The notes beneath the pieces are model-generated. The model was not told where the DNA came from. It saw only the letters and a program-made list of their open reading frames with translations, and ran no database searches. DNA of 64,000 nucleotides, taken from assembly GCF_000722775.1 (NCBI RefSeq), contig NZ_JPFZ01000010.1:1-64000 (forward strand), read 5' to 3'. The position numbers and the translations under genes were made by a program. Below are positions 39,263-64,000 of this stretch, one piece after another. The number at the start of each line of letters is the position of its first letter. Within the stretch, counting starts at the first letter, position 1. The DNA comes from Streptococcus mitis subsp. hohhotensis. GTDB taxonomy: Bacteria > Bacillota > Bacilli > Lactobacillales > Streptococcaceae.

Positions 39263-39768
39263 TAGACTTCCTTTCTCTTGCGGTATTGGATGGTAAAATC
39301 ATAAGGATTTTTCTCATCTTTGGCATAAGATTTGCTTGAAACCGTCTCAAAAAGGGACAGATCAAACTCCTCAGGAAAATAGGTATCTCCTTCCACCCGA
39401 GCATGGATTTGAGTGACAATTACTTCATCGAAATAGGGTTCAAAAGCCTGAAAAATCTGCTTTCCACCAATAATATAGAGATTCTTGTCTTGACCCTGAT
39501 ACCAGTCCAAGACAGACTGGATGTCCTGAAAAGTAGCAACCCCATCTATCTTTTCTTCCGGGTTACGTGTCAAAATCAAGGTCTCCCGTTTTGGAAGCAG
39601 TCGACGTCCCATCCCATCAAAGGTCACGCGTCCCATCAAGATAGCATGATTCAGAGTTGTTTCTTTGAAGTGTTGCAGTTCTGCTGGCAAATGCCAAGGC
39701 AGACGATTGTCCTTGCCAATCACACCCTCTTCATCCTGGGCCCAAATAGCTACGATTTTCTTAGTCAT
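39262..39768 (-). CDS. dfr: Dihydrofolate reductase
   Basis: 168 residues with the substrate-site motif [20 protein letters not shown] (8-27, containing the catalytic acidic region) and YIIGGKQIF. Reduces dihydrofolate with NADPH. Residue 100 is isoleucine, the form found in trimethoprim-susceptible pneumococci; leucine here is the well-known resistance change. Confidence 0.95.
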
Positions 39769-39849
39769 GCTTCCATCCTTTTCACTGATAGTACTATTTT
39801 ATCAAAAAACTCAAAAAAAGACTGGTTTGGAATAGCTTACAGAATAGAA

Positions 39850-39881
39850 AAAAATCCGTAAGAGGCATCCTACAGATTTTT
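39850..39881 (-). terminator. Terminator of dpr
   Basis: AAAAATCCGTA pairs with TACAGATTTTT (one mismatch) across a ten-base loop, about 20 bases past the dpr stop. Confidence 0.75.
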
Positions 39882-49684: not shown

Positions 49685-51010
49685 TTATTCCATTTCAAAA
49701 ACATCGCTTTCTTGCTTGTTTGGTAAAACCAATGAGATCAAGATTCCGACAACAGCTGGTACTAACCATGGGAGAGATGCCTTGGCAAAAGGAAGAGCGT
49801 TGACAAGGTTTGCAAGAAACTCAACCTTAAACGAGCTTCCTAGTACGCTTGCAATGGCAATGGCTGTAACAACAGCAATTGTCAACTGCATACCTGGTTT
49901 TGAAAGAGCCACAAATTTGTTAACAATGACAATCATAACGATAGCAATCGTGATTGGGTACAAGATAACCAATACTGGAATGGAGTACTTGATAATCGCA
50001 TCAAGACCCAAATTGGCAATGGCAAATCCAATCAAGGTAAAGGCTGTCGCATAAACCTTGTAGCTGATTTGTGGGAAACGCTCATTAAAGAACTCAGCTG
50101 TTGACACAATCAGACCAACTGTTGTTGTGAAGCAGGTTACAGTAACCATGGCTGCGAGGAAGAGTTGAGCTGTTGAACCAAAGATTTCTTGAGTCGCTTG
50201 TGATAAGATGTATACACCTGGTGTTCCACCCTTCATCGCTTCAGCTGGCACTGGGAAATGATTTCCAAGGAAACCTAAACCGATATAAAGGGCGCTGAAA
50301 GCAAGGGCAACAACGATACCAACAACCCAAATGGTTGAAATGTATTCTTTCTTACTTGAAAATCCAAGTTGTTTCAAGGTTTGAACTGCGATTACACTAA
50401 AGGCAACTGAGGCAAGGGCATCCAAGGTATTATAACCTTCTAGGAAACCTGTACCAAAGGCAGAAGCCTGATAAGCAGCTGACGCAGCTTGAGGACTTGT
50501 CCCACCATATTTGATAGCTCCTAGCACAACCAAGATAACAATCAAAATCGCAAAGACTGGTGTTAAAATACGGCCGATACGGTCTAAGATTTTTGATGGA
50601 TTAAGCGAAATTAAATAGGCTGCCGCAAAATACAGAACCGTAAAGACAATCAAACCAAGACCTTTATTTGCATTCGACAAAAGGGGGCTAATCCCTACTT
50701 CGTAAGCTGTTGTAGCTGTACGTGGGATGGCAAAGAATGGGCCGATTGACAAGTAAAGAACTGAGAGGTAAAGAGTCGCAAACCAAGGCGCTATCTTTGT
50801 TGAAATCTCGTAGATATATCCTTTAGGATTGAGCGTTCCAATAATAAGGGTCAAGACTGCGATACCGACGCCTGAAAAGACAAAACCTGCGATGGCAGGA
50901 AGAAAATGTTCTCCAGATAAAGCACCTAGAGAAGGCGGAAAAATCAAGTTTCCCGCACCAAAAAATATTCCAAACAGGAGCAAACCTGTTAGGGCACCTT
51001 TTTTAGCCAT
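49685..51010 (-). CDS. brnQ: Branched-chain amino acid transporter BrnQ (LIVCS family)
   Basis: Start set at ATG 51010 (441 residues) because AAGGAG lies 7 bases upstream and the ATG five codons earlier overlaps that site. Twelve hydrophobic segments; starts KGALTGLLLFGIFFGAGNLI, the family mark. Sodium-coupled uptake of Leu, Ile and Val. Confidence 0.93.
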   Translation of the reverse strand: MAKKGALTGLLLFGIFFGAGNLIFPPSLGALSGEHFLPAIAGFVFSGVGIAVLTLIIGTLNPKGYIYEISTKIAPWFATLYLSVLYLSIGPFFAIPRTATTAYEVGISPLLSNANKGLGLIVFTVLYFAAAYLISLNPSKILDRIGRILTPVFAILIVILVVLGAIKYGGTSPQAASAAYQASAFGTGFLEGYNTLDALASVAFSVIAVQTLKQLGFSSKKEYISTIWVVGIVVALAFSALYIGLGFLGNHFPVPAEAMKGGTPGVYILSQATQEIFGSTAQLFLAAMVTVTCFTTTVGLIVSTAEFFNERFPQISYKVYATAFTLIGFAIANLGLDAIIKYSIPVLVILYPITIAIVMIVIVNKFVALSKPGMQLTIAVVTAIAIASVLGSSFKVEFLANLVNALPFAKASLPWLVPAVVGILISLVLPNKQESDVFEME

Positions 51011-51182
51011 GAAAATCTCCTTCATATTTATAAAATACTGACCTAGTATATCATGAATAGGAGTATGAAAAAAGCTTCACGAAGTAAATATTGAATGTTT
51101 TCAAGATTCTTAAAAATGAGAATTGTCTAAAAATAAGATCCCCTACCCAGTCCACGCCAAGTAGGAGAAAATTCTAATGTTT

Positions 51183-51286
51183 ATACTCTTCGAAAATCTC
51201 TTCAAACCACGTCAGCTTCACCTTGCCGTACTCAAGTACAGCCTGCGGCTAGCTTCCTAGTTTGCTCTTTGATTTTCATTGAGTAT
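51183..51286 (+). repeat. BOX element (A-C) abutting the rhodanese stop codon at its boxC end
   Basis: ATACTCTTCG to CATTGAGTAT on the plus strand. Here it is the boxC end that joins the minus-strand stop codon (TAATACTCAATG on that strand). Confidence 0.93.
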
Positions 51287-51573
51287 TAAAGTTCTTCAAA
51301 GGACATCATGCCACCTTGTACATTGATAACCTCATAACCTTGTTCAGATAAGAATTGGCAAGCACGCGCCGATCTCATTCCAGATTTACAAATAACATAA
51401 TGTAACTGGTCCTTATCCAACTGATCATAGATATCGGCTAATTGACTCAGAGGAAGATTCTGAGCACCTTCTAAATGAAGAGCTTCAAACTCATCCACTT
51501 CTCTCACGTCCACTAAAGAAAGTTGGTCGTTTTGGTAAAGCTGGTAAAATGCGTCAAAGGCTATTTCTTTCAT
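51286..51573 (-). CDS. Single-domain rhodanese-like protein
   Basis: 95 residues; CH2A-like LVDVREVDEFEALHLEGAQN and active-site loop CKSGMRS with the catalytic cysteine. Possible sulfur carrier or thiosulfate sulfurtransferase. Overlaps the UDG-family gene by four bases. Confidence 0.88.
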   Translation of the reverse strand: MKEIAFDAFYQLYQNDQLSLVDVREVDEFEALHLEGAQNLPLSQLADIYDQLDKDQLHYVICKSGMRSARACQFLSEQGYEVINVQGGMMSFEEL

Positions 51574-52160
51574 TCTTTTTCTCCTAAAATAGTTTTAATT
51601 CTTTCTTTCAAATCCGGCACCACTTCTGACTCAAACCAAGGATTTTTAGCCATCCAGATTTGATTTCGCGGCGAGGGGTGAACTAGTGGAAAATAGGTTG
51701 GCAAGTAGTTCTGGTAATGTTTTACCCTTTCTGTCACCTTGCCACTGATTTTCTCCTTTAAATAGTAGGCTTGGGCATACTGGCCAATCAAGAGGGTCAA
51801 TTGGATGTCTGGTAATTCTTGCAAGAGCTGAGGATGCCATTTTTCCGCAAACCCAGTTCTCGGTGGCAGGTCACCTGACTTACCATGCCCTGGAAAGTAG
51901 AAATCCATAGGCAAAACAGCAAAATAACCTGAATTGTAAAAGGTATCTTCATCCACACCTAGCCAATCCCGCAAGCGATCGCCACTTTTATCCTTCCAGT
52001 AAAGGCCTGCCTCTTGGGTTTTAAGTCCAGGTGCCTGACCGATGATATTGATGCGAGCAGTCTTTGGCGCTGCAAAGAGAGGCTCGATGCCACGCTTTGT
52101 ATAGGTAGCATTCTGAGGATCTGCCATAATAGCCTGCTTGATTCTTTCAATTTGAGACAT
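51570..52160 (-). CDS. Uracil-DNA glycosylase family protein
   Basis: 196 residues; N-terminal IIGQAPGLKTQEAG (water-activating loop position, about 39-52) and C-terminal FPLVHPSPRNQIW (about 157-169) fit the UDG superfamily (TDG/family 4-like side). It is distinct from the classical Ung. Likely base-excision repair; substrate range unknown. Confidence 0.82.
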   Translation of the reverse strand: MSQIERIKQAIMADPQNATYTKRGIEPLFAAPKTARINIIGQAPGLKTQEAGLYWKDKSGDRLRDWLGVDEDTFYNSGYFAVLPMDFYFPGHGKSGDLPPRTGFAEKWHPQLLQELPDIQLTLLIGQYAQAYYLKEKISGKVTERVKHYQNYLPTYFPLVHPSPRNQIWMAKNPWFESEVVPDLKERIKTILGEKE

Positions 52161-52213
52161 CTACTTTCCCTCCAAAAAGAAGTCTAAGCATACAATCTCA
52201 GACTTCTATATCA

Positions 52214-53614
52214 TTATTTGATCAATTCGTAAATAGCTTCGGCATAGATTGCTGCTGCACGGAAGAGATCATCCAAGGCGATAAATTCATTTGCTTGGTG
52301 CATGGTGTCAATTGAGTCTGGGAACATGGCACCGTAGGCAACCCCACGCTCCAGCAAACGACCAAAGGTACCACCACCAATAACTTGCTCATGACCTTTA
52401 AGACCAGTTTGTTTTTCATAAACATTCAACAAGGTTTGCACAAGTGGATCTTCCATTGGCACATAGTGAGGGGTATGACCGTGCTCAGAAAGGCTAACAG
52501 AAGCAACTGGCAAGTTTTCAAGGATTGACTTGATTTGTTCTGGACTTGTTCCTTTTGGATAGCGGATATTAAGGGCAATGGTATTATCAGCACTTGTTTC
52601 ATTAAATCGGAAGACGCCTGCATTCATAGAAAGAGCACCCATCTTTTCATCCACATGGGCAATCTTGAGATTTTCACCCTCATGGTCGTTCAAAAGAATT
52701 TTACCAGCGATGTCAAGGTAGTCTTTGGCTGGACCAGCAAAGTCAAACTGGCTAAGGAAGAGGGCTAGGTAAGTCGCACCATTGACACCTGAAGCAGGCA
52801 TAGCACCGTGGGCTGATTTACCAATGATGGTCACCTTGTATTGGCCAGCTTCTTCTTGGAGTTCTCCTCTAAGTTTGTGTTCTGCAACAAAGGCATCTAG
52901 TTTAGCTTGCAAGTCAGCCAAACCACCTGAAACGACAGCTGTTGCTGATTCTGGTACCATGTTTTCACGCAAACCACCTGTGAAGCTGTGAAGACGAGCT
53001 GCACCTGCATTCTCACCTGCAAAGTGAAGGTATTCCGTGATATTTCCTTTTTCACCATTGATGATAGGGAACTCAGCGTCTGGAGAGAAACCAAAGTCTG
53101 GCTTGGCAAGTCCTACGTGCTCGAAGTAGTAGTCCATGTCTGCCCAGCCTGATTCTTCATCAGTTCCGACGATGAAGCGAACTTTCTTAGAAGTTGGAAG
53201 GCCCAACTCTTTGATGATTTTCAAACCATAGTAACAAGCTGTTGTAGGACCCTTGTCGTCCGAAGCCCCACGCGCATAAAGGCGACCATCTTTGATAGTT
53301 GGTGTGTAAGGGTCTGTGTCCCAACCGCTACCAGCTGGCACCACGTCCATGTGGGCAAAGATTCCGAGAACTTCTTCTCCATCACCAAACTCAAAATGTC
53401 CTGCGTAGTTGTCAACATTTTTAGTTGGGTAGCCATCGCGGTCTGCGATTTCAAGGAATTTTTCCAAGGCTTTTACTGGACCAGGCCCAAATGGATGCTC
53501 AGCATCAACCTTGCTATCATCACGTTCTGAGTTAATTTCCAAAAGGCTAAACAAGTCAGCCAAGAGGTCTTCTTTGCGTTTTTCTACTTCTGCTGTAAAA
53601 TCAATTGTTGTCAT
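52214..53614 (-). CDS. pepV: Dipeptidase PepV (M20 family)
   Basis: Start set at ATG 53614 (466 residues, MTTIDFTAEVEK). Metal ligands in FAHMDVVPAG, ARGASDDKGP and VGTDEESGW; C-terminal GGGTFGRL. Cleaves dipeptides with broad range in the cytoplasm. An upstream in-frame ATG lies in the nitroreductase 3' region and lacks support. Confidence 0.93.
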   Translation of the reverse strand: MTTIDFTAEVEKRKEDLLADLFSLLEINSERDDSKVDAEHPFGPGPVKALEKFLEIADRDGYPTKNVDNYAGHFEFGDGEEVLGIFAHMDVVPAGSGWDTDPYTPTIKDGRLYARGASDDKGPTTACYYGLKIIKELGLPTSKKVRFIVGTDEESGWADMDYYFEHVGLAKPDFGFSPDAEFPIINGEKGNITEYLHFAGENAGAARLHSFTGGLRENMVPESATAVVSGGLADLQAKLDAFVAEHKLRGELQEEAGQYKVTIIGKSAHGAMPASGVNGATYLALFLSQFDFAGPAKDYLDIAGKILLNDHEGENLKIAHVDEKMGALSMNAGVFRFNETSADNTIALNIRYPKGTSPEQIKSILENLPVASVSLSEHGHTPHYVPMEDPLVQTLLNVYEKQTGLKGHEQVIGGGTFGRLLERGVAYGAMFPDSIDTMHQANEFIALDDLFRAAAIYAEAIYELIK

Positions 53615-53627
53615 TTTTTTCTTCTTT

Positions 53628-54233
53628 CTATCTTTTCTCGATGATTTCATCTACTGGCAAGCGGTAACTTGGTTCCAATTTTTCGTCTGTGTATCCCACT
53701 GTAATCAAGAGTTCTGGGCGGAAGCGGTCTTCGATATCCAAAACTTCATTGACTTTTGATTTGTCAAAACCAAGAATCAGATTTGATCCGATTCCCTGAT
53801 CTGTAAGAGCCAAAACCAAATTCATAGCAACCAAACCTGCATTGAGGGCTAGATAGTCGCTGACTTGTTGTTCATTGTAACGGGCAAATTCAGCAGGCAA
53901 ATTCTTCATAAAATATTGAAGTTGCTCTTCAGAAAAGTTATTAGCACCACCAACACGAGCAATCTTACGAGCACGTTTAGCCAAATCTGTGTCTGTAAAC
54001 AAGGCAATAGTTACAGGCGCTGATGATACCTGTTCAAAGTTTGAACCGTAAGCCAATTTTGCTAGTTCGGCATTTTTCTCACGCACCACTACAAATTTCC
54101 AAGGCTGGCTGTTGTGGGCACTCGGTGCCAAGGTTGCAATTTCGATAGCCGTACGCACATCTTTTGGATCCACTGGCTTATCAGTGAAATGCTTAGTCGC
54201 ATGACGTTTTTTATTTAATTCAAGAAATTTCAT
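53628..54233 (-). CDS. Nitroreductase family FMN enzyme
   Basis: 201 residues; N-terminal KKRHATKHFTDKPVD and APSAHNSQPWKFVVV are the FMN-binding marks. NAD(P)H-dependent reductase, physiological substrate unknown. Lies 13 bases upstream of pepV. Confidence 0.88.
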   Translation of the reverse strand: MKFLELNKKRHATKHFTDKPVDPKDVRTAIEIATLAPSAHNSQPWKFVVVREKNAELAKLAYGSNFEQVSSAPVTIALFTDTDLAKRARKIARVGGANNFSEEQLQYFMKNLPAEFARYNEQQVSDYLALNAGLVAMNLVLALTDQGIGSNLILGFDKSKVNEVLDIEDRFRPELLITVGYTDEKLEPSYRLPVDEIIEKR

Positions 54234-54403
54234 AATCGATTTCCTTTTCTAATTCTACTGCTTCCATTCTACCATAATTTGAAAGAGCTTGCAGGGATTT
54301 TTCATGATTAAGATTTTTTATTACAGCCATAAAAAATATATATTGGTTCATCAAGAAAGTTTCTGATAAACTAGCAAGTACTTTACATTTGAATGGAGAT
54401 ATT

Positions 54404-55204
54404 ATGAAAAAATTTAGCCTTTTACTACTCATCTTCCCATTTTTAGTTGCCTGTGGAAATCAAGCTACACCTAAAGAAACCAGCTCTCAAAAGACAATCG
54501 TCGTTGCTACAGCTGGTGATGTGCCACCATTTGACTACGAAGATAAAGGCAATCTGACAGGCTTCGATATTGAAGTTCTAAAGGCAGTGGATGAAAAACT
54601 CAGCGACTACGAGATTCAATTCCAAAGAACTGCTTGGGAGAGTATCTTCCCAGGACTTGATTCTGGTCACTATCAAGCTGCAGCCAACAACCTGAGTTAC
54701 ACAAAAGAGCGTGCTGAAAAATACCTTTACTCACTTCCAATTTCGAACAACCCCCTCGTCCTCGTCAGCAACAAGAAAAATCCTCTGACTTCACTTGACC
54801 AAATTGCTGGCAAAACAACACAGGAGGATACTGGAACTTCAAACGCTCAATTCATTAATAACTGGAATCAAAAACATACTGATAATCCTGCTACAATTGA
54901 TTTTTCTGGTGAGGATATCGGTAAACGAATCCTAGACCTCTCTAACGGTGAATTTGATTTCCTCATTTTTGACAAGGTATCCGTTCAAAAGATCATCAAG
55001 GACCGTGGCTTAGATCTCTCAGTCGTTGATTTACCTTCTGCCGATAGCCCCAACAACTATATCGTTTTCTCAAGCGACCAGAAAGAGTTTAAAGAGCAAT
55101 TTGATAAAGCACTCAAAGAACTCTACCAAGACGGAACACTCGAAAAACTCAGTAATACCTATCTAGGGGGTTCTTATCTTCCAGATCAATCTCAGTTACA
55201 ATAA
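54404..55204 (+). CDS. Amino-acid ABC transporter substrate-binding lipoprotein
   Basis: Start set at ATG 54404 (266 residues) with GGAGATATT upstream. Lipobox LVAC (C18) after LLLLIFPF. SBP_bac_3 domain (VATAGDVPPFDYEDKGNLTG, FDIEVLKAVDE). No permease or ATPase gene is adjacent, so it must work with a transporter encoded elsewhere or is an orphan. The only plus-strand gene in this half of the window; its TAA stop abuts a BOX element. Confidence 0.9.
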   Translation: MKKFSLLLLIFPFLVACGNQATPKETSSQKTIVVATAGDVPPFDYEDKGNLTGFDIEVLKAVDEKLSDYEIQFQRTAWESIFPGLDSGHYQAAANNLSYTKERAEKYLYSLPISNNPLVLVSNKKNPLTSLDQIAGKTTQEDTGTSNAQFINNWNQKHTDNPATIDFSGEDIGKRILDLSNGEFDFLIFDKVSVQKIIKDRGLDLSVVDLPSADSPNNYIVFSSDQKEFKEQFDKALKELYQDGTLEKLSNTYLGGSYLPDQSQLQ

Positions 55205-55317
55205 TACTCTTCGAAAATCTCTTCAAACCACGTCAGCTCTATCTGCAGCCTCAAAACAGTGTTTTGAGCAGCCTACGTCTAGCTTCCTAGTTTGCTCTTT
55301 GATTTTCATTGAGTATA
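55204..55317 (+). repeat. Degenerate BOX element (truncated A, partial B, C)
   Basis: boxA breaks off after CCACGTCAGC and joins directly to a boxB fragment (CTCAAAACAGTGTTTTGAG) and boxC. It starts at the stop codon of the lipoprotein gene (TAATACTC). Confidence 0.9.
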
Positions 55318-55326
55318 AGATATATT

Positions 55327-55355
55327 AAAAACGATTGGACCAGTCAATCGTTTTT
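55327..55355. terminator. Bidirectional terminator between lipoprotein and phosphoesterase genes
   Basis: AAACGATTG pairs with CAATCGTTT across GACCAGT, with A and T runs, between convergent genes. Confidence 0.85.
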
Positions 55356-55383
55356 AGTTTGCATTGGTTATTTTAGGAAACTT

Positions 55384-56217
55384 TTACAAAAAATCAAAAT
55401 AATCCTTCACATCTTCTACATACCTATGCTTTTCTATTAAGCTGGCTAAGAGTTCCAGATTGTGTCCCTGATAGTTATCTTCACGACGTAATTCTTCATA
55501 CATTTCGATAAAGGGAAGCCCCTTGGACTTGGCCAATTCTAACTCAGTCTCGTAATCATAAGCAACTTTACGAAATTGTATATTGACCAATTCCCCATCT
55601 TCAACCTCTATCACGGCATACTGGGCACGGTGATTTTTTAACGCCTCCCAATTAAAATAGGGCATACCAATCGAACCTGGATTGATGATTTGTTGCCCTT
55701 GACTGCCATAACGAAGCAACTGCTTGTGAACATGACCATAGACTGCCACGTCCGTTTCCTCATCTAGTAGTTGGTCAAATTTCTCTGTATCATTCTCAAC
55801 TAGCAAGTCACCACCATAGTTCTTATTTGGCAAATTATGAGAGATAGAAAAGCACAAGCCGTCAATTTCTTTCTTTTCCAGCAAAGGTAAGCTTCGTAGC
55901 CATACAATCGTTGCAGGATCCATTCGCTCCATCAAAAACTGGGTCATTCGCATTGACTGGATTTCTTGTGGATGTTCCAAACCATATTCACCATCCAAGG
56001 CCTCAAGGACACAATCATCCCAATTACCTCGAACACTGGCTGTGATAGGAATGTCCTTTAGCAGGGCTACCAAGTCATTTGCACCTGGACCAGGAAGAAA
56101 AATATCTCCCAGAAGCCAGTATTCACTGACTCCTTGATTTTTAGCATCTGCAATCACTGCTTCTAAGGCCGTCGCATTGCCATGAATATCTGATAAAATT
56201 GCGATTTTATGGTTCAT
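55384..56217 (-). CDS. Calcineurin-like metallophosphoesterase
   Basis: 277 residues with LSDIHGN (about 8-14), [30 protein letters not shown] and NPGSIG, all ligand blocks of the family. Cytoplasmic phosphodiesterase of unknown substrate. Its start overlaps the uvrC end by 11 bases. Confidence 0.87.
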
Positions 56218-58054
56218 TGTGGTTTCCTTCCGTTTGGTATTCTACTCTTTCTTCCGCCACTTGAGCCAACTCCACTTCTTCCTGCGGGTTCAACTTCCTC
56301 TGCACTGCTTCTGCGACTGCTCTAGGCACCCCAACTTCGACAATCTCATCCACACTGGCTTCCTTGATTTTGGTCAGAGACTTAAAATGCTTCATGAGAT
56401 TTTGCTTGCGTTTAGGTCCCAGGCCGTCAATGCCATCCAATTGTGATGAAAAGGAATTTTTGGAGCGCAGTTGGCGATGGAAAGTGATAGCAAAGCGGTG
56501 TACCTCATCTTGGATGCGCTGAAGGAGGAAAAATTCCTGAGAATTGCGAGATAACTCCACCACTTCAAGCGGATCTCCAAAGAGCAATTCATGGGTTTGG
56601 TGCTTGTCATTCTTTTGCAGACCTGCAATGGGAATATCCAAGCCTAGCTCCTCTTGGATGACTTGCTTAGCAATATTGACTTGACCTTGTCCCCCATCAA
56701 TCACAATCAAATCTGGCGGAGTCAAGCCGTCACGTTGAACTCGACCATAACGCCTGCGAATGACTTCTCTCATACTGGCATAGTCGTCTGGCCCAACGAC
56801 AGTCTTGATTTTATACTTACGATAATCCTTCTTACTTGGTTTGCCGTTGACAAAGACCACCATGGCAGAAACAGGACTAGTTCCCATGATGTTGGAGTTA
56901 TCGAAGGACTCGATGCGGACTGGTGTCGGGATTTGGAGTAAGCGTCCTAGATTTTCAATAGCCCCTTGGGTCTTTTCGACAGATTTCTCTAGCAGGTTGA
57001 ATTTCTGCTCTAGACTGACTCGAGCATTCTTTATAGCCAAATTGACCAGTTGCTTTTTCTCTCCACGCTGAGGCTTAAGAATCTTGGTGTCTACCAAAGC
57101 CTTGACAGCTTCTTCGTCAATATCCCGCGGAATTAGTACCTCATTGGGAACCAGGTGGGATTTTTCTTGATAGAATTGTCCCACGTAGGTCAAGAAATCC
57201 TCATCCGGATCATTGTAGTAGGGGAAAAGATTGACATCGCGCTCAATAAGCTTGCCCTGACGAACAAAGAAAACCTGTACACACATCCAGCCCTTATCCA
57301 CATAGTAGCCAAAGACATCACGATTTTGGAGATCCTTAGCCATGACCCGTTGCTTGGTTCGAAGTGTTCCAATAGCCTGAATCAGGTCACGGTATTCCGC
57401 TGCACGTTCAAACTCCATAGTCTGGGCTGCCGTTGCCATCTTGCTCTTGAGGTCATCGATAATTTGATCATCCTGCCCTTTCAGAAAATCAGAAACCTCC
57501 TGAGCCATAGACCTGAAATAGTCCTCATCCTTCTTACAGATGGTGTGGGCCATACATTGACCGATATGGTAGTAAAAACAGACCTTAGACGGTGGATTGG
57601 TACACTTGCGAAAAGGGAAAATCCGATCCAGTAATCGCTTGATTTCATTGGCTGCCCCTACATCTGGATAAGGTCCGAAATAAAGACCTCCATCTTTTTT
57701 GACCTGACGAGTGATAATCAAACGAGGATAGCGTTCATTGGTGATTTTGATGAAAGGATAAGACTTATCATCCTTGAGCATGATATTGTACTTGGGCTTG
57801 TTTTCCTTAATCAGGTTGATTTCTAGGAGAAGTGCCTCAATATTGGACTCCGTAACAATAAATTCAAAATCCACAATTTCAGATACCAAGGCCTCTGTCT
57901 TGGTATCGTGACTCCCTCGGAAATAGGACCTCACGCGGTTACGCAGATTTTTAGCCTTTCCTACATAGATAATGGTGCCGTTTTTATCCTTGTGAATGTA
58001 GCAACCAGGGCTGGTCGGCAAGAGCTCTAGTTTTGATTTAATCAAGTTGTTCAT
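56207..58054 (-). CDS. uvrC: Excinuclease ABC subunit C
   Basis: 615 residues. N-terminal GIY-YIG domain ([20 protein letters not shown]), UVR motif ([11 protein letters not shown]), C-terminal RNase H-like nuclease ([18 protein letters not shown]) and HhH region ([16 protein letters not shown]). Makes both incisions in nucleotide excision repair. Confidence 0.97.
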
Positions 58055-58092
58055 AGTTCCATTATAGCAAAAAAGTAGGGAAAGATAATCCC

Positions 58093-58794
58093 CTACTCAT
58101 TGGTCTCATATATTTTTCGAAGTCTTTCAACATCCTCTTCCTGGATACCATAAAATGAACCCGCAGGTTGCATGACAGACTTCTCATCTGTATGGTCCAA
58201 GCCAATCGCATGACCCAACTCATGTTCTGCAGTATGGACAATGCGCTCATAGGAATAGCCATAGTTAGGATTGGACAGATAATAGTGATTCAACCGTACC
58301 GTGACAGACAAGAATTGTCCTGTTAAGAGATTGGTCTGACTTTCCGCTTCTCCTGCCACAGGAGTGCCTCCGTCATTCATCTCCGTAGCCAAGATATCTG
58401 CCTTGCTGGACTCGGTGACAATTTCAAAGTTAAAAGCACCCGTTTGATTCCAATTCTGAATCGCTTCTACATAAGCTTCTTGAAAGTGTGAATCCATCTG
58501 GGGATCCAAGTAAATACGAGCAGAGGCCTGTGGCCACCTTCCTTCAGAGTGTTGATGACTATCTGTCTGGCTTAACTTAGGCAGTTGCCCTGTTCTTTCC
58601 CATTGGTCGATACTTTGTTGACCAATCTTTACTGACCGCTCTGCTTGCTTCAGCGCTCCTTGAAAATCCCCGTTCAGATACCAGAGAAATCCAAAAGCAA
58701 GAGTGCTTAAAAGCAAAACAATCCAAACCAGGCGCCAAAACAAACGCCACACAAAAGAAAAGAAAACCCCTATCAAACGAAAAAGCCAGCGCAT
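58093..58794 (-). CDS. Membrane-anchored matrixin-like zinc metalloprotease
   Basis: 233 residues. A hydrophobic N-terminus (residues about 5-44) forms a membrane anchor or signal. The C-terminal half has the complete metzincin zinc motif [11 protein letters not shown] (HExxHxxGxxH) followed by VMQP, the Met-turn. No pro-domain cysteine switch is obvious. Substrate unknown. It sits between murMN and uvrC with a GGAGGG ribosome site. A related gene is at this place in pneumococci, from memory. Confidence 0.88.
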
Positions 58795-58872
58795 GTCCCT
58801 CCACCTTTCTAGAAAATAAAGACTATTTTACTAAAACAAGCTGAAAGAAAACTAAATACTGGTTTTTTCATC

Positions 58873-61329
58873 TTAACGTCCTACTATTTTTTTGAGTAAC
58901 TGAATAGCTTTGTATTTTAAAGGTGATGGATGGTAACGGAAAGTACCCGCTTTGCGTACAATATAGCCATTAAAATTTTGTTTAAAACGCAAAACACCAT
59001 CACTACCATCAAAAATCCCTTGAATCCCTAGGAAGTTGTATTTAGGTATTCCACGTTTTATGCTTTCCAACATAATATATTTTTGAAGTAGCGCAGGGGC
59101 ATAGAACTTATTAAATTCAGTGTAGGAACCACTAAAGAGGTAAGTCGTTTCCTGAGGCATATAAACAAACAAACTCCCGGCTAAAACAATATCTTCTTCT
59201 CCATATTTTTCAATCAAGTCTCTCGCTTCTGCTTTTCGAACTTCAAACGTTTCAAATTGACTAGAATATTCTCTCAGTTGATTTTGTTTTTTCTCAGAAT
59301 GAGGATTTTTACTCAAATCAAGTCGCAACTTGTCCAAGACTTCTTCTAGTTTACTTTGTTCACCTTGCAATTTGCTCATATACTCCGAAAAATTTAAGCT
59401 TGCTATGAGAAACTCAGCTTGTTCTCCAAAAGCATCATAAAAATGCTCATAGTATTCTAAACTTTTATCACTATATTCTCTACGTTCAGAGGTTTCTTTT
59501 GTTATATTCTTAAAAATTGATAGCTCTTCACGTTTTAACTTTTTCAACCGAATGCCAAACGTTTCAGCCTTTTTCACCAAGGGTTTACCCTTTTTGCTAA
59601 AACTTTTAAGCAAATTCTTTTCAGTTAATTCAGTCAAATCTTTATAGTATAACCAATCTGGTTCTCCACCTGGATAACCTGTTGTCAAGCCATCAAATTG
59701 ATAACCTAAATCAGTTAAACCTTGAATGATACTTTTTTTCTCAGTATCTATTGGATTACCTTCACTATCAAAAGTTTGATAAGTTTCATAAGGTTTTACA
59801 AGCAACTCTAATACACCATTTTGCTTGGCATATTCTTTTAACTCCGCATAAAAAACTGGAAGAGCATCTTGTTGGGTATAAATCGGCCCCGAATTGATCT
59901 CCATATGCAGACCACCCAGCATGGGCAAGCTATAAACCAGAGCTGCAACTTGAATTTCTCCTTCTTGTTTCAAAGCTAGATAAACAATTCGAGCCCCTCT
60001 TTTTTCTAACAAGTCCCCCATCTGAACAGATTGCATAAAGGAACGAGAAGAAACCTGATCAGAATAAGCCTGAAACTCTTCTTTCGTGAGTGTAATTAGT
60101 GCCATATACTTACTTTCTATGTTTTTTCTTAATGTTTTACGGAAATCAAGAGCAAGTCTTAACAGAGGATAGAGAGGATGGGTAGGCATTGTAAATTCTC
60201 CCAAATATTCTTCAATCGTTGGATTAAATTTTTCCTTAAAATGATAAAGTCCACCATTGAGAGAGTTTTCAACACCACCTAAATTTTGCCACAACATACC
60301 TCGCTCAAAGGCATAGCGAGCCGTTTCATACCAAGTTAAAATTGGTGCATTGTAACGTTTAAAATCATCATCCATACCAGCATATAGATTGACAGAGGTA
60401 TTACCAAATTCCAAACTCAAAGTAGCCGCTAAGGGAATGTTTGATTTTCCCATATTCATATATCCCTGCAAGAAATCTATTTCCTCTACCAAACGCTCTT
60501 TTTCCTTCTTCTGTGCCTCTACTTTTGAAGTTCGAGTCGACTTAGTAATCGCCTCTTCCAACGCTTTGTTTTTAGCTAACTGTTCTTCTAATTCTCTTAA
60601 ACGCTTAGAAACATCCAAACTCGTTAGCGTGATATAAGAATCTTCTTTGAAGTTATCTAATAATTTTTTATAATAGGCTTCGTTTCTTAAATGAATCTCT
60701 TTTCGCTTCTCAGTTTTTTTCATCAACTCCGAAAATGAATCTAATAGTTCCAGTCCACCATATTGAATCTCAAGCCCTTTGTTTCGTGCTGTTCGGATAG
60801 CTTGCCTCGTTGATTTAGAAAGTTTATCTTCTTCAAAATTTTCCTTGTATATTTTCGCCTGAATACGAGGCTGAATGGTGTCATCCATCTCGGTTGTCCG
60901 CCCAGACCATTTCACTCCTAATTGCCCTAAAATCTCAACAATAGCAAGATTTTCAGGATATTCTATCTTATCTTGATTGACCAAATATTGAGATAGACAA
61001 ATACTTGGATCGAAAGTCACAAAAACCGCTCTCTTACTGCGAGCATAAGACTTAATAGACTGCAGGACAAACTTTAAAAGTTCTATATCCCTGTAATCCA
61101 ATATAGGTCCTCTTGGAATATAAAACATTTTATAGCCTAAAGGCAGAGATTTTATGAGAATACTAGCCACAGCCAGTAACTTCCCCTCTTCATAGACACC
61201 AAATTTCTCATGATTCCAATCAGATTTCACTTTTTCCCAAGCACTGCTTTGTAATACATTAGCTAATTCATGTTCTTTGACAAACTGATCATATTCTAAT
61301 GTGGGAATGCCAATTTGATAACGGTACAT
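58873..61329 (-). CDS. murMN: Fused MurM-MurN branched-peptide ligase (818 aa)
   Basis: One continuous frame with two FemABX domains. Residues 1-408 are MurM (MYRYQIGIPTLEYDQF; coiled-coil arm around 240-300), 409-818 are MurN (MALITLTKEEFQAYSDQV; arm around 640-700). MurM adds L-Ser or L-Ala and MurN adds L-Ala from aminoacyl-tRNA to lipid II lysine, making indirect cross-links; MurM is linked to beta-lactam resistance. The two are normally separate (406 and 410 residues). Here adding one A to the A6 tract (plus positions 60122-60127) would end MurM as RKKHRK after 406 codons, four bases before the MurN ATG (60105). So this is a one-base fusion or a sequencing error. Confidence 0.88.
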   Translation of the reverse strand: MYRYQIGIPTLEYDQFVKEHELANVLQSSAWEKVKSDWNHEKFGVYEEGKLLAVASILIKSLPLGYKMFYIPRGPILDYRDIELLKFVLQSIKSYARSKRAVFVTFDPSICLSQYLVNQDKIEYPENLAIVEILGQLGVKWSGRTTEMDDTIQPRIQAKIYKENFEEDKLSKSTRQAIRTARNKGLEIQYGGLELLDSFSELMKKTEKRKEIHLRNEAYYKKLLDNFKEDSYITLTSLDVSKRLRELEEQLAKNKALEEAITKSTRTSKVEAQKKEKERLVEEIDFLQGYMNMGKSNIPLAATLSLEFGNTSVNLYAGMDDDFKRYNAPILTWYETARYAFERGMLWQNLGGVENSLNGGLYHFKEKFNPTIEEYLGEFTMPTHPLYPLLRLALDFRKTLRKNIESKYMALITLTKEEFQAYSDQVSSRSFMQSVQMGDLLEKRGARIVYLALKQEGEIQVAALVYSLPMLGGLHMEINSGPIYTQQDALPVFYAELKEYAKQNGVLELLVKPYETYQTFDSEGNPIDTEKKSIIQGLTDLGYQFDGLTTGYPGGEPDWLYYKDLTELTEKNLLKSFSKKGKPLVKKAETFGIRLKKLKREELSIFKNITKETSERREYSDKSLEYYEHFYDAFGEQAEFLIASLNFSEYMSKLQGEQSKLEEVLDKLRLDLSKNPHSEKKQNQLREYSSQFETFEVRKAEARDLIEKYGEEDIVLAGSLFVYMPQETTYLFSGSYTEFNKFYAPALLQKYIMLESIKRGIPKYNFLGIQGIFDGSDGVLRFKQNFNGYIVRKAGTFRYHPSPLKYKAIQLLKKIVGR

Positions 61330-61459
61330 TTCCTACTCTCTTTCCTCCAGTATCTTATTACTATTCTACTACTTTCGTTTGAAAAGTCTAGTGAAAACAG
61401 ACTTCCAGCATTGTTTTAAATCCAAGAATAACTATAAATAGTGGTTCATTTATAAAAAA

Positions 61460-62257
<798 letters not shown>

Positions 62258-62265
62258 CTATAAGA

Positions 62266-62287
62266 AAAAGCCGAAATTCGACTTTCT
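62266..62287 (-). terminator. Probable terminator of the RNase J2 gene
   Basis: Minus strand AAAGTCGAA pairs with TTCGGCTTT (one G-T pair) followed by TTCT. Short loop, so some stem bases would open. Confidence 0.6.
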
Positions 62288-62305
62288 CTCCGTTTATTTC
62301 AACAA

Positions 62306-63967
62306 TTATTTCGCTTCCATGACTACTGGTAAAATAGCTGGACGACGTTTGGTTTGGTCAAAGAGGTACTTGGTCAGATTATCACGAACCTTCCCTTTGA
62401 GATCTGCCCAGTCAAAGTCATCTCCTTGAAGATAGTCTTCTACCGTTTGGTTAATCAATTCTGAACTTTCACGGAGAATATCGCGACTCTTCTTGAGATA
62501 AACAAATCCGCGCGTATGAACACGAGCCTTGGCTACAATTTTCTTCTCACGACGGTTAACGGTAATTGCGACGATGAAAATACCATCCTCTGACAAAACC
62601 TTACGGTCACGAAGAACCACATTGCCAACATCACCAATGGCATTCCCGTCAATCAAGACATCCCCTGCCGAAACCGCTCCAGCTGGGACAAAGTCTCCAT
62701 TCTCATAAGCCATGCTGGTTCCCTTTTTAGGAATGAAAATGCGTTCTGGCAACATCCCAACTGCCATAGCAGCCTTAGCGTGGGCATCCAACTCGCGGTA
62801 TTCCCCTTGAATTGGGAAGAGATACTTAGGTTGCAAGAGATTAATCATCAACTGCAAGTCACGCGCATTCCCATGTCCTGACACACGCAAGCTTTGAGTG
62901 ATCAGTTTGACCACTCCACCAGCTTGGTAAATCATATTTTCCACACGCGCCATGACCGCTTCTTTGGCGATAGATGGAGTCGTTACGATATAGACCAGGT
63001 CACCGTCCTTGATTTCCACATAACGATGGCGCCCAATCGACATCTTGCGAAGACCGTTGATAGGCTCACCCATACGACCTGTCTCAAGGATAATCAACTC
63101 ATGGTCTTCAAAACGAGACATATCTTTTGGCTTAATCAAAAGACTCTCATTAGCTAGAGACAATTTCTTAAGGCGAATAGCAGTGCGGACGATATTTTCA
63201 ATATCAAATCCTGTCAAGACCACACGACGACCTGTTGCATCCGCAGCGTCAAACACCTGCTGGATACGAGAGAGGTTGCTGGCTACTGCTGCAACAATGA
63301 TACGACCATCCCAGTCCGAAATGGTTTGAGTGATCTCGTCCCCAACTTCACTTTCGCTAGCCACTTGGATATTGCTATCTGCATTGGCTGAATCGCTAAG
63401 AAGAGCTAGAACTCCATCACGACCGATTTCTGCCAAACGAGCGAAGTCTGTCGCATAAGATTCACTAGCTGTCTGGTCAAATTTGAAGTCACCTGTATAA
63501 ACGATACTACCTTCAGCTGTCTTCAAGACAACACCCAGACTTTCTGGGATAGAGTGGGTCGTACGGAAGAAGGACACCACAGTTCCTCCAAAATCAATCT
63601 CCGTATCCTCATCGATAACATGGAAATCATTGAATTTCTTAACTGTGTCATTTCCTTTGACAAAGAGTTTGGCCAACTCAATGGTCAGCTCAGACCCAAA
63701 TACAGGCACCTTAGCTTCAGCCAAGAGATAAGGCAGCGCACCAATGGCATCCGCATGGCCGTGGGTCAAGAAGACCCCTGCGATACGGTCGCTATTTTCA
63801 AAAAGGTAGTCCATATTAGGAATAACCACATCCACCCCTAGTTGTTCATTTTCAGGGTACTTTAGACCTGCATCCAAAACGAAAATAGACCCATCGATTT
63901 CAGCGATATACATATTTTTCCCATTTTCACGCACACCACCAAGTGTTGTTAAACTGATATTACTCAT
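62306..63967 (-). CDS. rnjB: Ribonuclease J2
   Basis: 553 residues: metallo-beta-lactamase domain, beta-CASP insert and RMMBL. The metal motif reads THGHADAIG, where RNase J1 has HxHxDH; a later ligand position reads PIQGEYR where J1 has PxHGEYR. These changed residues identify J2, which has little activity alone and works in a complex with J1 in 5'-end RNA processing and decay. ATG at 63967 with GGAGGA upstream. Next to estA as in pneumococcus. Confidence 0.92.
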   Translation of the reverse strand: MSNISLTTLGGVRENGKNMYIAEIDGSIFVLDAGLKYPENEQLGVDVVIPNMDYLFENSDRIAGVFLTHGHADAIGALPYLLAEAKVPVFGSELTIELAKLFVKGNDTVKKFNDFHVIDEDTEIDFGGTVVSFFRTTHSIPESLGVVLKTAEGSIVYTGDFKFDQTASESYATDFARLAEIGRDGVLALLSDSANADSNIQVASESEVGDEITQTISDWDGRIIVAAVASNLSRIQQVFDAADATGRRVVLTGFDIENIVRTAIRLKKLSLANESLLIKPKDMSRFEDHELIILETGRMGEPINGLRKMSIGRHRYVEIKDGDLVYIVTTPSIAKEAVMARVENMIYQAGGVVKLITQSLRVSGHGNARDLQLMINLLQPKYLFPIQGEYRELDAHAKAAMAVGMLPERIFIPKKGTSMAYENGDFVPAGAVSAGDVLIDGNAIGDVGNVVLRDRKVLSEDGIFIVAITVNRREKKIVAKARVHTRGFVYLKKSRDILRESSELINQTVEDYLQGDDFDWADLKGKVRDNLTKYLFDQTKRRPAILPVVMEAK

Positions 63968-64000
63968 TTTTCCTCCGAAAGCTTAGTTTATCTTGATTAT

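What the first reader, a model, noticed from the sequence alone, without database searches (positions are those of the whole stretch)
58873..61329. murM and murN joined into one 818-codon gene by one base in an A6 tract
The minus-strand frame runs through from MurM to MurN without a stop. At the junction the run after AAG has six A (plus 60122-60127). Seven A would give the ending RKKHRK-stop at codon 406, the normal MurM length, and the MurN start at codon 409 gives a 410-residue MurN, also normal. A fused enzyme could channel the two additions; a homopolymer tract could also slip, giving a mix of fused and separate proteins. It could equally be a sequencing error.
Basis: partly seen in the sequence, partly recalled or inferred. 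Interest (0 to 1): 0.75.

Follow-up and report, generated by a model that had tools for sequence, protein, structure and literature searches.

The report
Rare fused murM–murN allele
In a mitis-group streptococcus two neighbouring cell-wall genes read as one long gene because a run of A's at their junction has an uncommon length; a few other Streptococcus mitis genomes have the same run, so it looks like a rare natural variant whose effect on the cell wall is untested.

Summary
Minus strand 61329-58873 is one open frame of 818 codons with two complete FemAB domains, MurM then MurN, joined at an A6 run at 60127-60122; the genome has no other FemAB match. Of 41 genomes with the mitis-type junction, 3 have the window's tract length (window, S. 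mitis SK667, S. mitis DD26) and 38 the common one. SK667 gives the same 818-codon frame; DD26's MurN is cut by an assembly gap. DD26 has another murM background, which suggests more than one origin. Sequencing error is unlikely: no split among 117 ORFs matched from S. mitis 321A, and 95 of 97 A/T runs in gene bodies are equal. The junction is among the most conserved stretches of the locus; murN's ribosome site TAGAAAG and ATG survive. Likeliest: a rare natural fusion allele making a MurM-MurN protein and probably some free MurN; free MurM would need a rare -1 slip at A AAA AAC, with no RNA stimulator found. Channelling and a phase switch are unsupported. Whether the fused enzyme works is open.

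The parts
58873..61329 (-). fused murM-murN open frame, 818 codons
   Evidence: two PF02388 matches
60121..61329 (-). MurM half, codons 1-403 (lacks the last few codons of the usual MurM)
   Evidence: 80-93% identical to MurM of the relatives with the mitis-type junction that were compared
60121..60127 (-). A6 run plus C: heptamer A AAA AAC in the zero frame (AGA AAA AAC)
   Evidence: sequence
60106..60120 (-). short linker, codons 404-408 (IESKY), between the two halves
   Evidence: AlphaFold2 model has residues 397-408 at pLDDT below 50
60113..60119 (-). murN ribosome-binding site TAGAAAG, 7 bases before the ATG, complementary to the 3' end of this genome's 16S rRNA
   Evidence: sequence; 16S 3' end pattern found 4 times in the genome
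58873..60105 (-). MurN half, codons 409-818, with its own ATG kept
   Evidence: 96-98% identical to most 410-residue MurN of mitis-group relatives

Best explanation
A rare natural allele in Streptococcus mitis-like strains. A length change of the A run near the end of murM took the murM stop out of frame, so ribosomes that start at murM continue through murN and make one 818-residue protein of two complete FemAB transferases joined by a short flexible linker (frame shown; protein inferred). MurN can still be started separately at its own Shine-Dalgarno and ATG (inferred from sequence). Free MurM could come only from occasional -1 slipping on A AAA AAC (inferred, expected low). The simplest functional guess is that the fused protein keeps at least part of both activities (MurM adds Ala or Ser to the lysine of lipid II, MurN adds Ala), and that the allele is tolerated because mitis-group strains often vary or lose murM and murN.
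For: Frame and domains. Same frame in SK667 and same tract in DD26. Assembly quality. Private amino-acid changes: window 5 in MurM and 0 in MurN, SK667 1 and 0, within the range of the rows counted (0-19 over 30 rows, 0-6 over 24 rows), so no sign of decay. Model: both halves modelled as FemAB-like domains, mean pLDDT 80.3, linker 397-408 below 50, pTM 0.51; best PDB matches FemA 1lrz and FemX 6snr. murN ribosome site. Natural variation or loss of murM/murN: 2 of 45 rows with an early stop in murM and six rows with a short murN at the usual start, and passages of PMC4863584.
Against: No transcript, protein or muropeptide data. The tract class is rare (3 of 41, one of them a gapped draft). Nothing shows selection to keep the fusion. 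The MurM tail replaced by the linker lies in one of the most conserved stretches of the locus, so losing it may harm MurM. SK667 has shorter runs than 321A at 7 of 26 seven-base A/T runs and longer at none, so a bias in that assembly cannot be wholly excluded. A single assembly error in the window cannot be excluded without reads.
Confidence: 0.62

Rival explanations
1. The fused frame is real DNA but a loss-of-function or damaged allele: MurM without its usual tail, fused to MurN, has little or no activity and the strain has mostly linear stem peptides.
For: Other breaks of murM or murN occur here: L028 murM stops at 213 codons, L043 at 195, and six rows have a murN of 15-44 codons at the usual start. 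Passages of PMC4863584 report mitis-group strains without murM and murN. The rarity of the allele fits a cost.
Against: Both frames are intact over 818 codons in two genomes that differ by about 6%, with no excess of private changes.
Confidence: 0.25
2. Sequencing or assembly error in the A run of the window.
For: Homopolymers are a common error site. The sequencing platform of the window and of SK667 is unknown to me. DD26 is a gapped draft (31 N runs in 140 kb), and a paper that used it names 454/Newbler for its monkey strains (passage). SK667 tends to shorter seven-base runs than 321A (7 of 26).
Against: No split among 117 matched ORFs; 95 of 97 gene-body A/T runs equal to 321A; same tract in SK667, with no split among 83 matched ORFs and 61 of 61 gene-body runs equal.
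Confidence: 0.08
3. A slip or phase switch: the conserved A run toggles, by replication or transcription slippage or by -1 frameshifting, between fused and separate enzymes.
For: Junction among the most conserved stretches of the locus; the window's tract class occurs on two murM backgrounds; A AAA AAC in frame.
Against: The run is short; no stimulatory fold (z +0.49; 137 of 200 shuffles fold at least as well); conservation is also explained by the murN ribosome site and the basic MurM tail; only one consensus state per genome was seen.
Confidence: 0.05

Closest known systems
murMN operon of Streptococcus pneumoniae and the mitis group (separate MurM and MurN)
   Different: Here the murM stop is out of frame, so one 818-codon frame results
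Staphylococcus aureus FemA/FemX and Weissella FemX
   Same: Sequence and fold relatives of the halves
   Different: One FemAB unit per chain, not a tandem
Tandem GNAT proteins (2wpw, 7q3a)
   Same: Two acyltransferase domains in one chain
   Different: Other families and substrates; each FemAB unit itself already holds two GNAT-like halves (recalled)
Programmed -1 frameshifting in IS elements (A_AAA_AAC_1 cluster in PMC4066793, passage)
   Same: Same heptamer in the zero frame
   Different: No evidence that slipping is used here; the same passages call the heptamer inefficient in E. coli

Membership tests
MurM/MurN (FemAB, PF02388) | Full-length FemAB profile match | tested here: met
   positions 3-404 and 1-406 of 406
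MurM/MurN (FemAB, PF02388) | MurM then MurN order in the mitis-group junction context | tested here: met
MurM/MurN (FemAB, PF02388) | Aminoacyl transfer to lipid II | not testable with these tools
   no assay data
Established fusion enzyme | Both domains complete in one frame | tested here: met
Established fusion enzyme | Fused form kept across a lineage | tested here: inconclusive
   tract in 3 of 41 genomes, full fused frame seen in 2; shared or independent origin not settled
Established fusion enzyme | Fused protein made | not testable with these tools
   no proteomics
Programmed -1 frameshift | Slippery heptamer in the zero frame | tested here: met
   AGA AAA AAC at 60129-60121
Programmed -1 frameshift | Downstream stimulatory RNA fold | tested here: not met
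   one 92-base stretch, z +0.49
Programmed -1 frameshift | Upstream Shine-Dalgarno stimulator | not tested
   no call
Phase-variable homopolymer locus | Mixed tract lengths within one strain | not testable with these tools
   only consensus assemblies
Phase-variable homopolymer locus | Long hypermutable run | tested here: inconclusive
   six bases, short by the usual standard (recalled); mutation rate not measured. PMC1088944 concerns transcription slippage, nine bases in many genomes

The most novel reading that the evidence does not exclude
The conserved A run at the murM-murN junction is a built-in switch: populations of S. mitis toggle between separate and fused MurM-MurN, changing how often stem peptides receive one or two added amino acids; the genomes with the window's tract are snapshots of the minority state.
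Probability: 0.05. Interest if true: 0.65.

Novelty: new variant of a known kind. Interest (0 to 1): 0.35.

Why it matters
[quoted passage not shown] pneumoniae (abstract start of PMC12632259), and MurM and MurN together make the branched stem peptides; in that species murM overexpression without murN is toxic (same paper, passages). A natural allele that ties the two enzymes in a fixed ratio is a ready test of whether their coupling matters. If it is inactive, it is another natural loss of branching.

Tried and rejected
Sequencing error as main reading: set aside after frame and homopolymer controls, not fully excluded. DD26 as a broken MurN: I first took its 478-codon frame for a second mutation, but the break lies at a 54-N scaffold gap, so nothing can be said about its MurN beyond that point. 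DD26 as wholly unreliable: of 15 split ORFs (16 rows), 12 adjoin N runs by my eye against and 3 do not; 82 of 83 gene-body A/T runs agree with 321A, so its tract is moderate evidence. SK667 shortening: 7 of 26 seven-base runs of 321A are shorter in SK667, none longer, but in gene bodies 6 of 6 are the same; the 7 lie at gene ends (3, one of them this tract) or between genes (4), so I read it as natural variation. RNA stimulator: none. Rfam: only SpF22 sRNA in 50000-64000. NCBIfam: no model reached its cut-off. Promoter and terminator scan gave nothing that I used. Protein alignments A1 and A4 put MurM rows on the MurN half and were not used; A2, with one MurN row misplaced, was used for the model, so the MurN half rests on four rows. 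A3 was not used. Literature: the listings and the passages I opened show no report of a fused MurM-MurN; I read no paper in full and most listed papers I did not open.

Full report
What is there. On the minus strand, 61329-58873 is one open frame of 818 codons. Pfam FemAB (PF02388) matches it twice, at 60151-61302 (positions 3-404 of 406, 436 bits) and 58888-60090 (1-406, 508 bits); no other FemAB match at E up to 0.001 was found in this genome of 2.13 Mb in 15 contigs. The first half is MurM, the second MurN: the MurM of relatives with the mitis-type junction that were compared are 80-93% identical, and most of their 410-residue MurN 96-98%. The junction reads AGA AAA AAC ATA GAA AGT AAG TAT ATG, with six A at 60127-60122; the murN ATG is codon 409.

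How common it is. A search of 284 Streptococcus genomes, one per species, with the MurM half gave matches in 233. Among the listed rows the open frame exceeds 800 only in the window (819) and G106 (830 by the tool's count, 818 from the ATG), and is 479 in G104 (the match table is truncated below the best rows). I tabulated 45 genomes: the window, 40 others taken from its best MurM matches, and four found only. Four of the 45 have another junction form (L036, L038, L041, L042). Of the other 41, 3 have the window's tract length and 38 the common one. A pattern scan of the GTDB r220 contigs gave 33 records, 31 of the common class and 2 of the window's class, again SK667 and DD26; 29 of the 33 are contigs already in the 45 by their length. 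In 295 genomes of the order, 99 had FemAB matches, and the window was the only listed one with two FemAB matches in one frame (match table truncated, SK667 and DD26 not among the listed genomes).

Is it an error? I compared 144 kb of the window's contig with 140 kb of S. mitis 321A (G103, 94.9% identical over 110,677 aligned bases). Of 135 ORFs of at least 120 residues in 321A, 117 had a match, 115 over more than 95% of their length, 2 only in part, and none was split between frames. In reverse, 119 of 141 ORFs matched, 115 in full, and the only split was the murMN frame. Of A/T runs of six or more in 321A, 95 of 97 in gene bodies (3-97% of an ORF) had the same length in the window, 29 of 30 at gene ends (the exception is this tract) and 48 of 59 between genes. 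SK667: 83 ORFs matched, 82 in full, none split; runs 61 of 61, 20 of 24 and 40 of 48. Against this, SK667's seven-base runs differ from 321A only downward, 7 of 26. DD26 is a gapped draft: 6,510 N in 140 kb; 108 ORFs matched, 80 in full, 15 split, 12 of these at N gaps by eye; runs 82 of 83, 25 of 26 and 41 of 53. DD26's MurN is interrupted by an N gap, not by a shown mutation. A paper that used DD26 (PMC4863584, passages) names 454 3K paired-end reads and Newbler for its monkey strains; the platform for DD26, apparently a human isolate, was not in the passages. I found no platform for SK667 (passages) and do not know the window's. Errors thus do not explain the pattern well: nearly all tract differences fall at gene ends and between genes, where they would be tolerated.

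One origin or several. The window and SK667 are 93.8% identical over 71,842 aligned bases but differ at one site in the 200 columns upstream of the junction motif and at none from 10 to 100 columns downstream. Genomes of the common class are about as close there (G227, G088, G226, G103), because the junction is very conserved, so a shared origin by recombination is possible but not shown. DD26 has the other murM type: 30 differences from the window in the 200 upstream columns, against 2 from its nearest relative, L071, which has the common tract. Two origins is the simpler reading; a short recombination is not excluded.

What the junction does. For conservation I used 30 of the 45 genomes (12 left out for a short, missing or unlocated murN or murM, 3 more as too distant). 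Mean pairwise diversity is 0.003 in the 45 bases that begin 45 before the murN ATG, within the lowest 0.5% of all such windows, against 0.121 for murM and 0.106 for murN; the longest invariant run, 31 bases, begins 28 before the ATG (gaps count as missing, and the murN figure mixes two MurN types). A plain reason is at hand: TAGAAAG, seven bases before the ATG, is complementary to the 3' end of 16S rRNA, found four times in this genome, and the same stretch encodes the basic MurM tail. In relatives with this junction and a full murN, murN starts 4 bases after the murM stop, which suggests coupled translation. In the fused allele the ribosome site and ATG remain, so some free MurN is plausible (inference). 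The murM and murN parts on either side of the junction vary: in L067 and L076 similarity to the window begins only about 20 bases before the tract, apart from one weak piece in L067, and a second MurN type follows the same junction in several genomes.

Slipping. A AAA AAC lies in the zero frame. A -1 slip would end translation at a nearby stop and give a MurM of usual size (reading of the window's own sequence). No stimulatory fold follows in the 92 bases tested. PMC4066793 (passages) calls this heptamer inefficient in E. coli, though it lists one proven IS case. [quoted passage not shown] I therefore expect slipping to be minor.

Does the fusion work? The AlphaFold2 model has two FemAB-like domains, mean pLDDT 80.3, five short stretches below 50 of which 397-408 is the linker, and pTM 0.51, so the mutual placement is unknown. 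Foldseek's best PDB matches are S. aureus FemA and FemX and Weissella FemX. Nothing here speaks for channelling. Private amino-acid changes of the window are 5 (MurM) and 0 (MurN), of SK667 1 and 0, within the spread of the 30 and 24 rows counted. Passages of PMC12632259 say that MurM adds Ala or Ser and MurN then Ala, and that murM overexpression without murN is toxic in S. pneumoniae; a fusion would hold the two enzymes at a fixed ratio. Passages of PMC4863584 report that murM and murN vary and are missing in some mitis-group strains, so an impaired allele would also be tolerated.

Verdict. A real, rare, natural-looking fusion allele of a known operon. New variant of a known kind; modest interest until protein or muropeptide data exist. 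Papers were seen as search listings, abstract starts and passages only; none was read whole.

Noticed in passing
window 51201-51377 (-): Match to Rfam SpF22 sRNA (99.2 bits, gathering 55).
   Followed up: no
window 39848, ORF 39403-39861 (+): A run longer by one than in 321A and SK667, near the end of a small ORF.
   Followed up: partly
L018, L020, L027, L035, L037, L071, L074: A second MurN type of 388 residues (63-65% identical in the five compared; L071 and L074 only by length) sits behind the same conserved junction, which looks like a frequent recombination border.
   Followed up: partly
L008, L029, L030, L031, L039, L040: The murN frame at the usual ATG ends after 15-44 codons; L039 and L040 have a longer frame starting further on.
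   Followed up: no
   Followed up: no
L067, L076, L074: DNA similarity to the window begins only about 20 bases before the tract, apart from a weak piece in L067: the murN junction follows a much diverged upstream sequence. In L074 the locus ends about 750 bases upstream, so its murM is not fully in view.
   Followed up: partly
window 58093-58794 (-): Downstream neighbour: a 233-residue protein with a zinc-protease-like HELGHAIGLDH motif (motif recalled, sequence).
   Followed up: no
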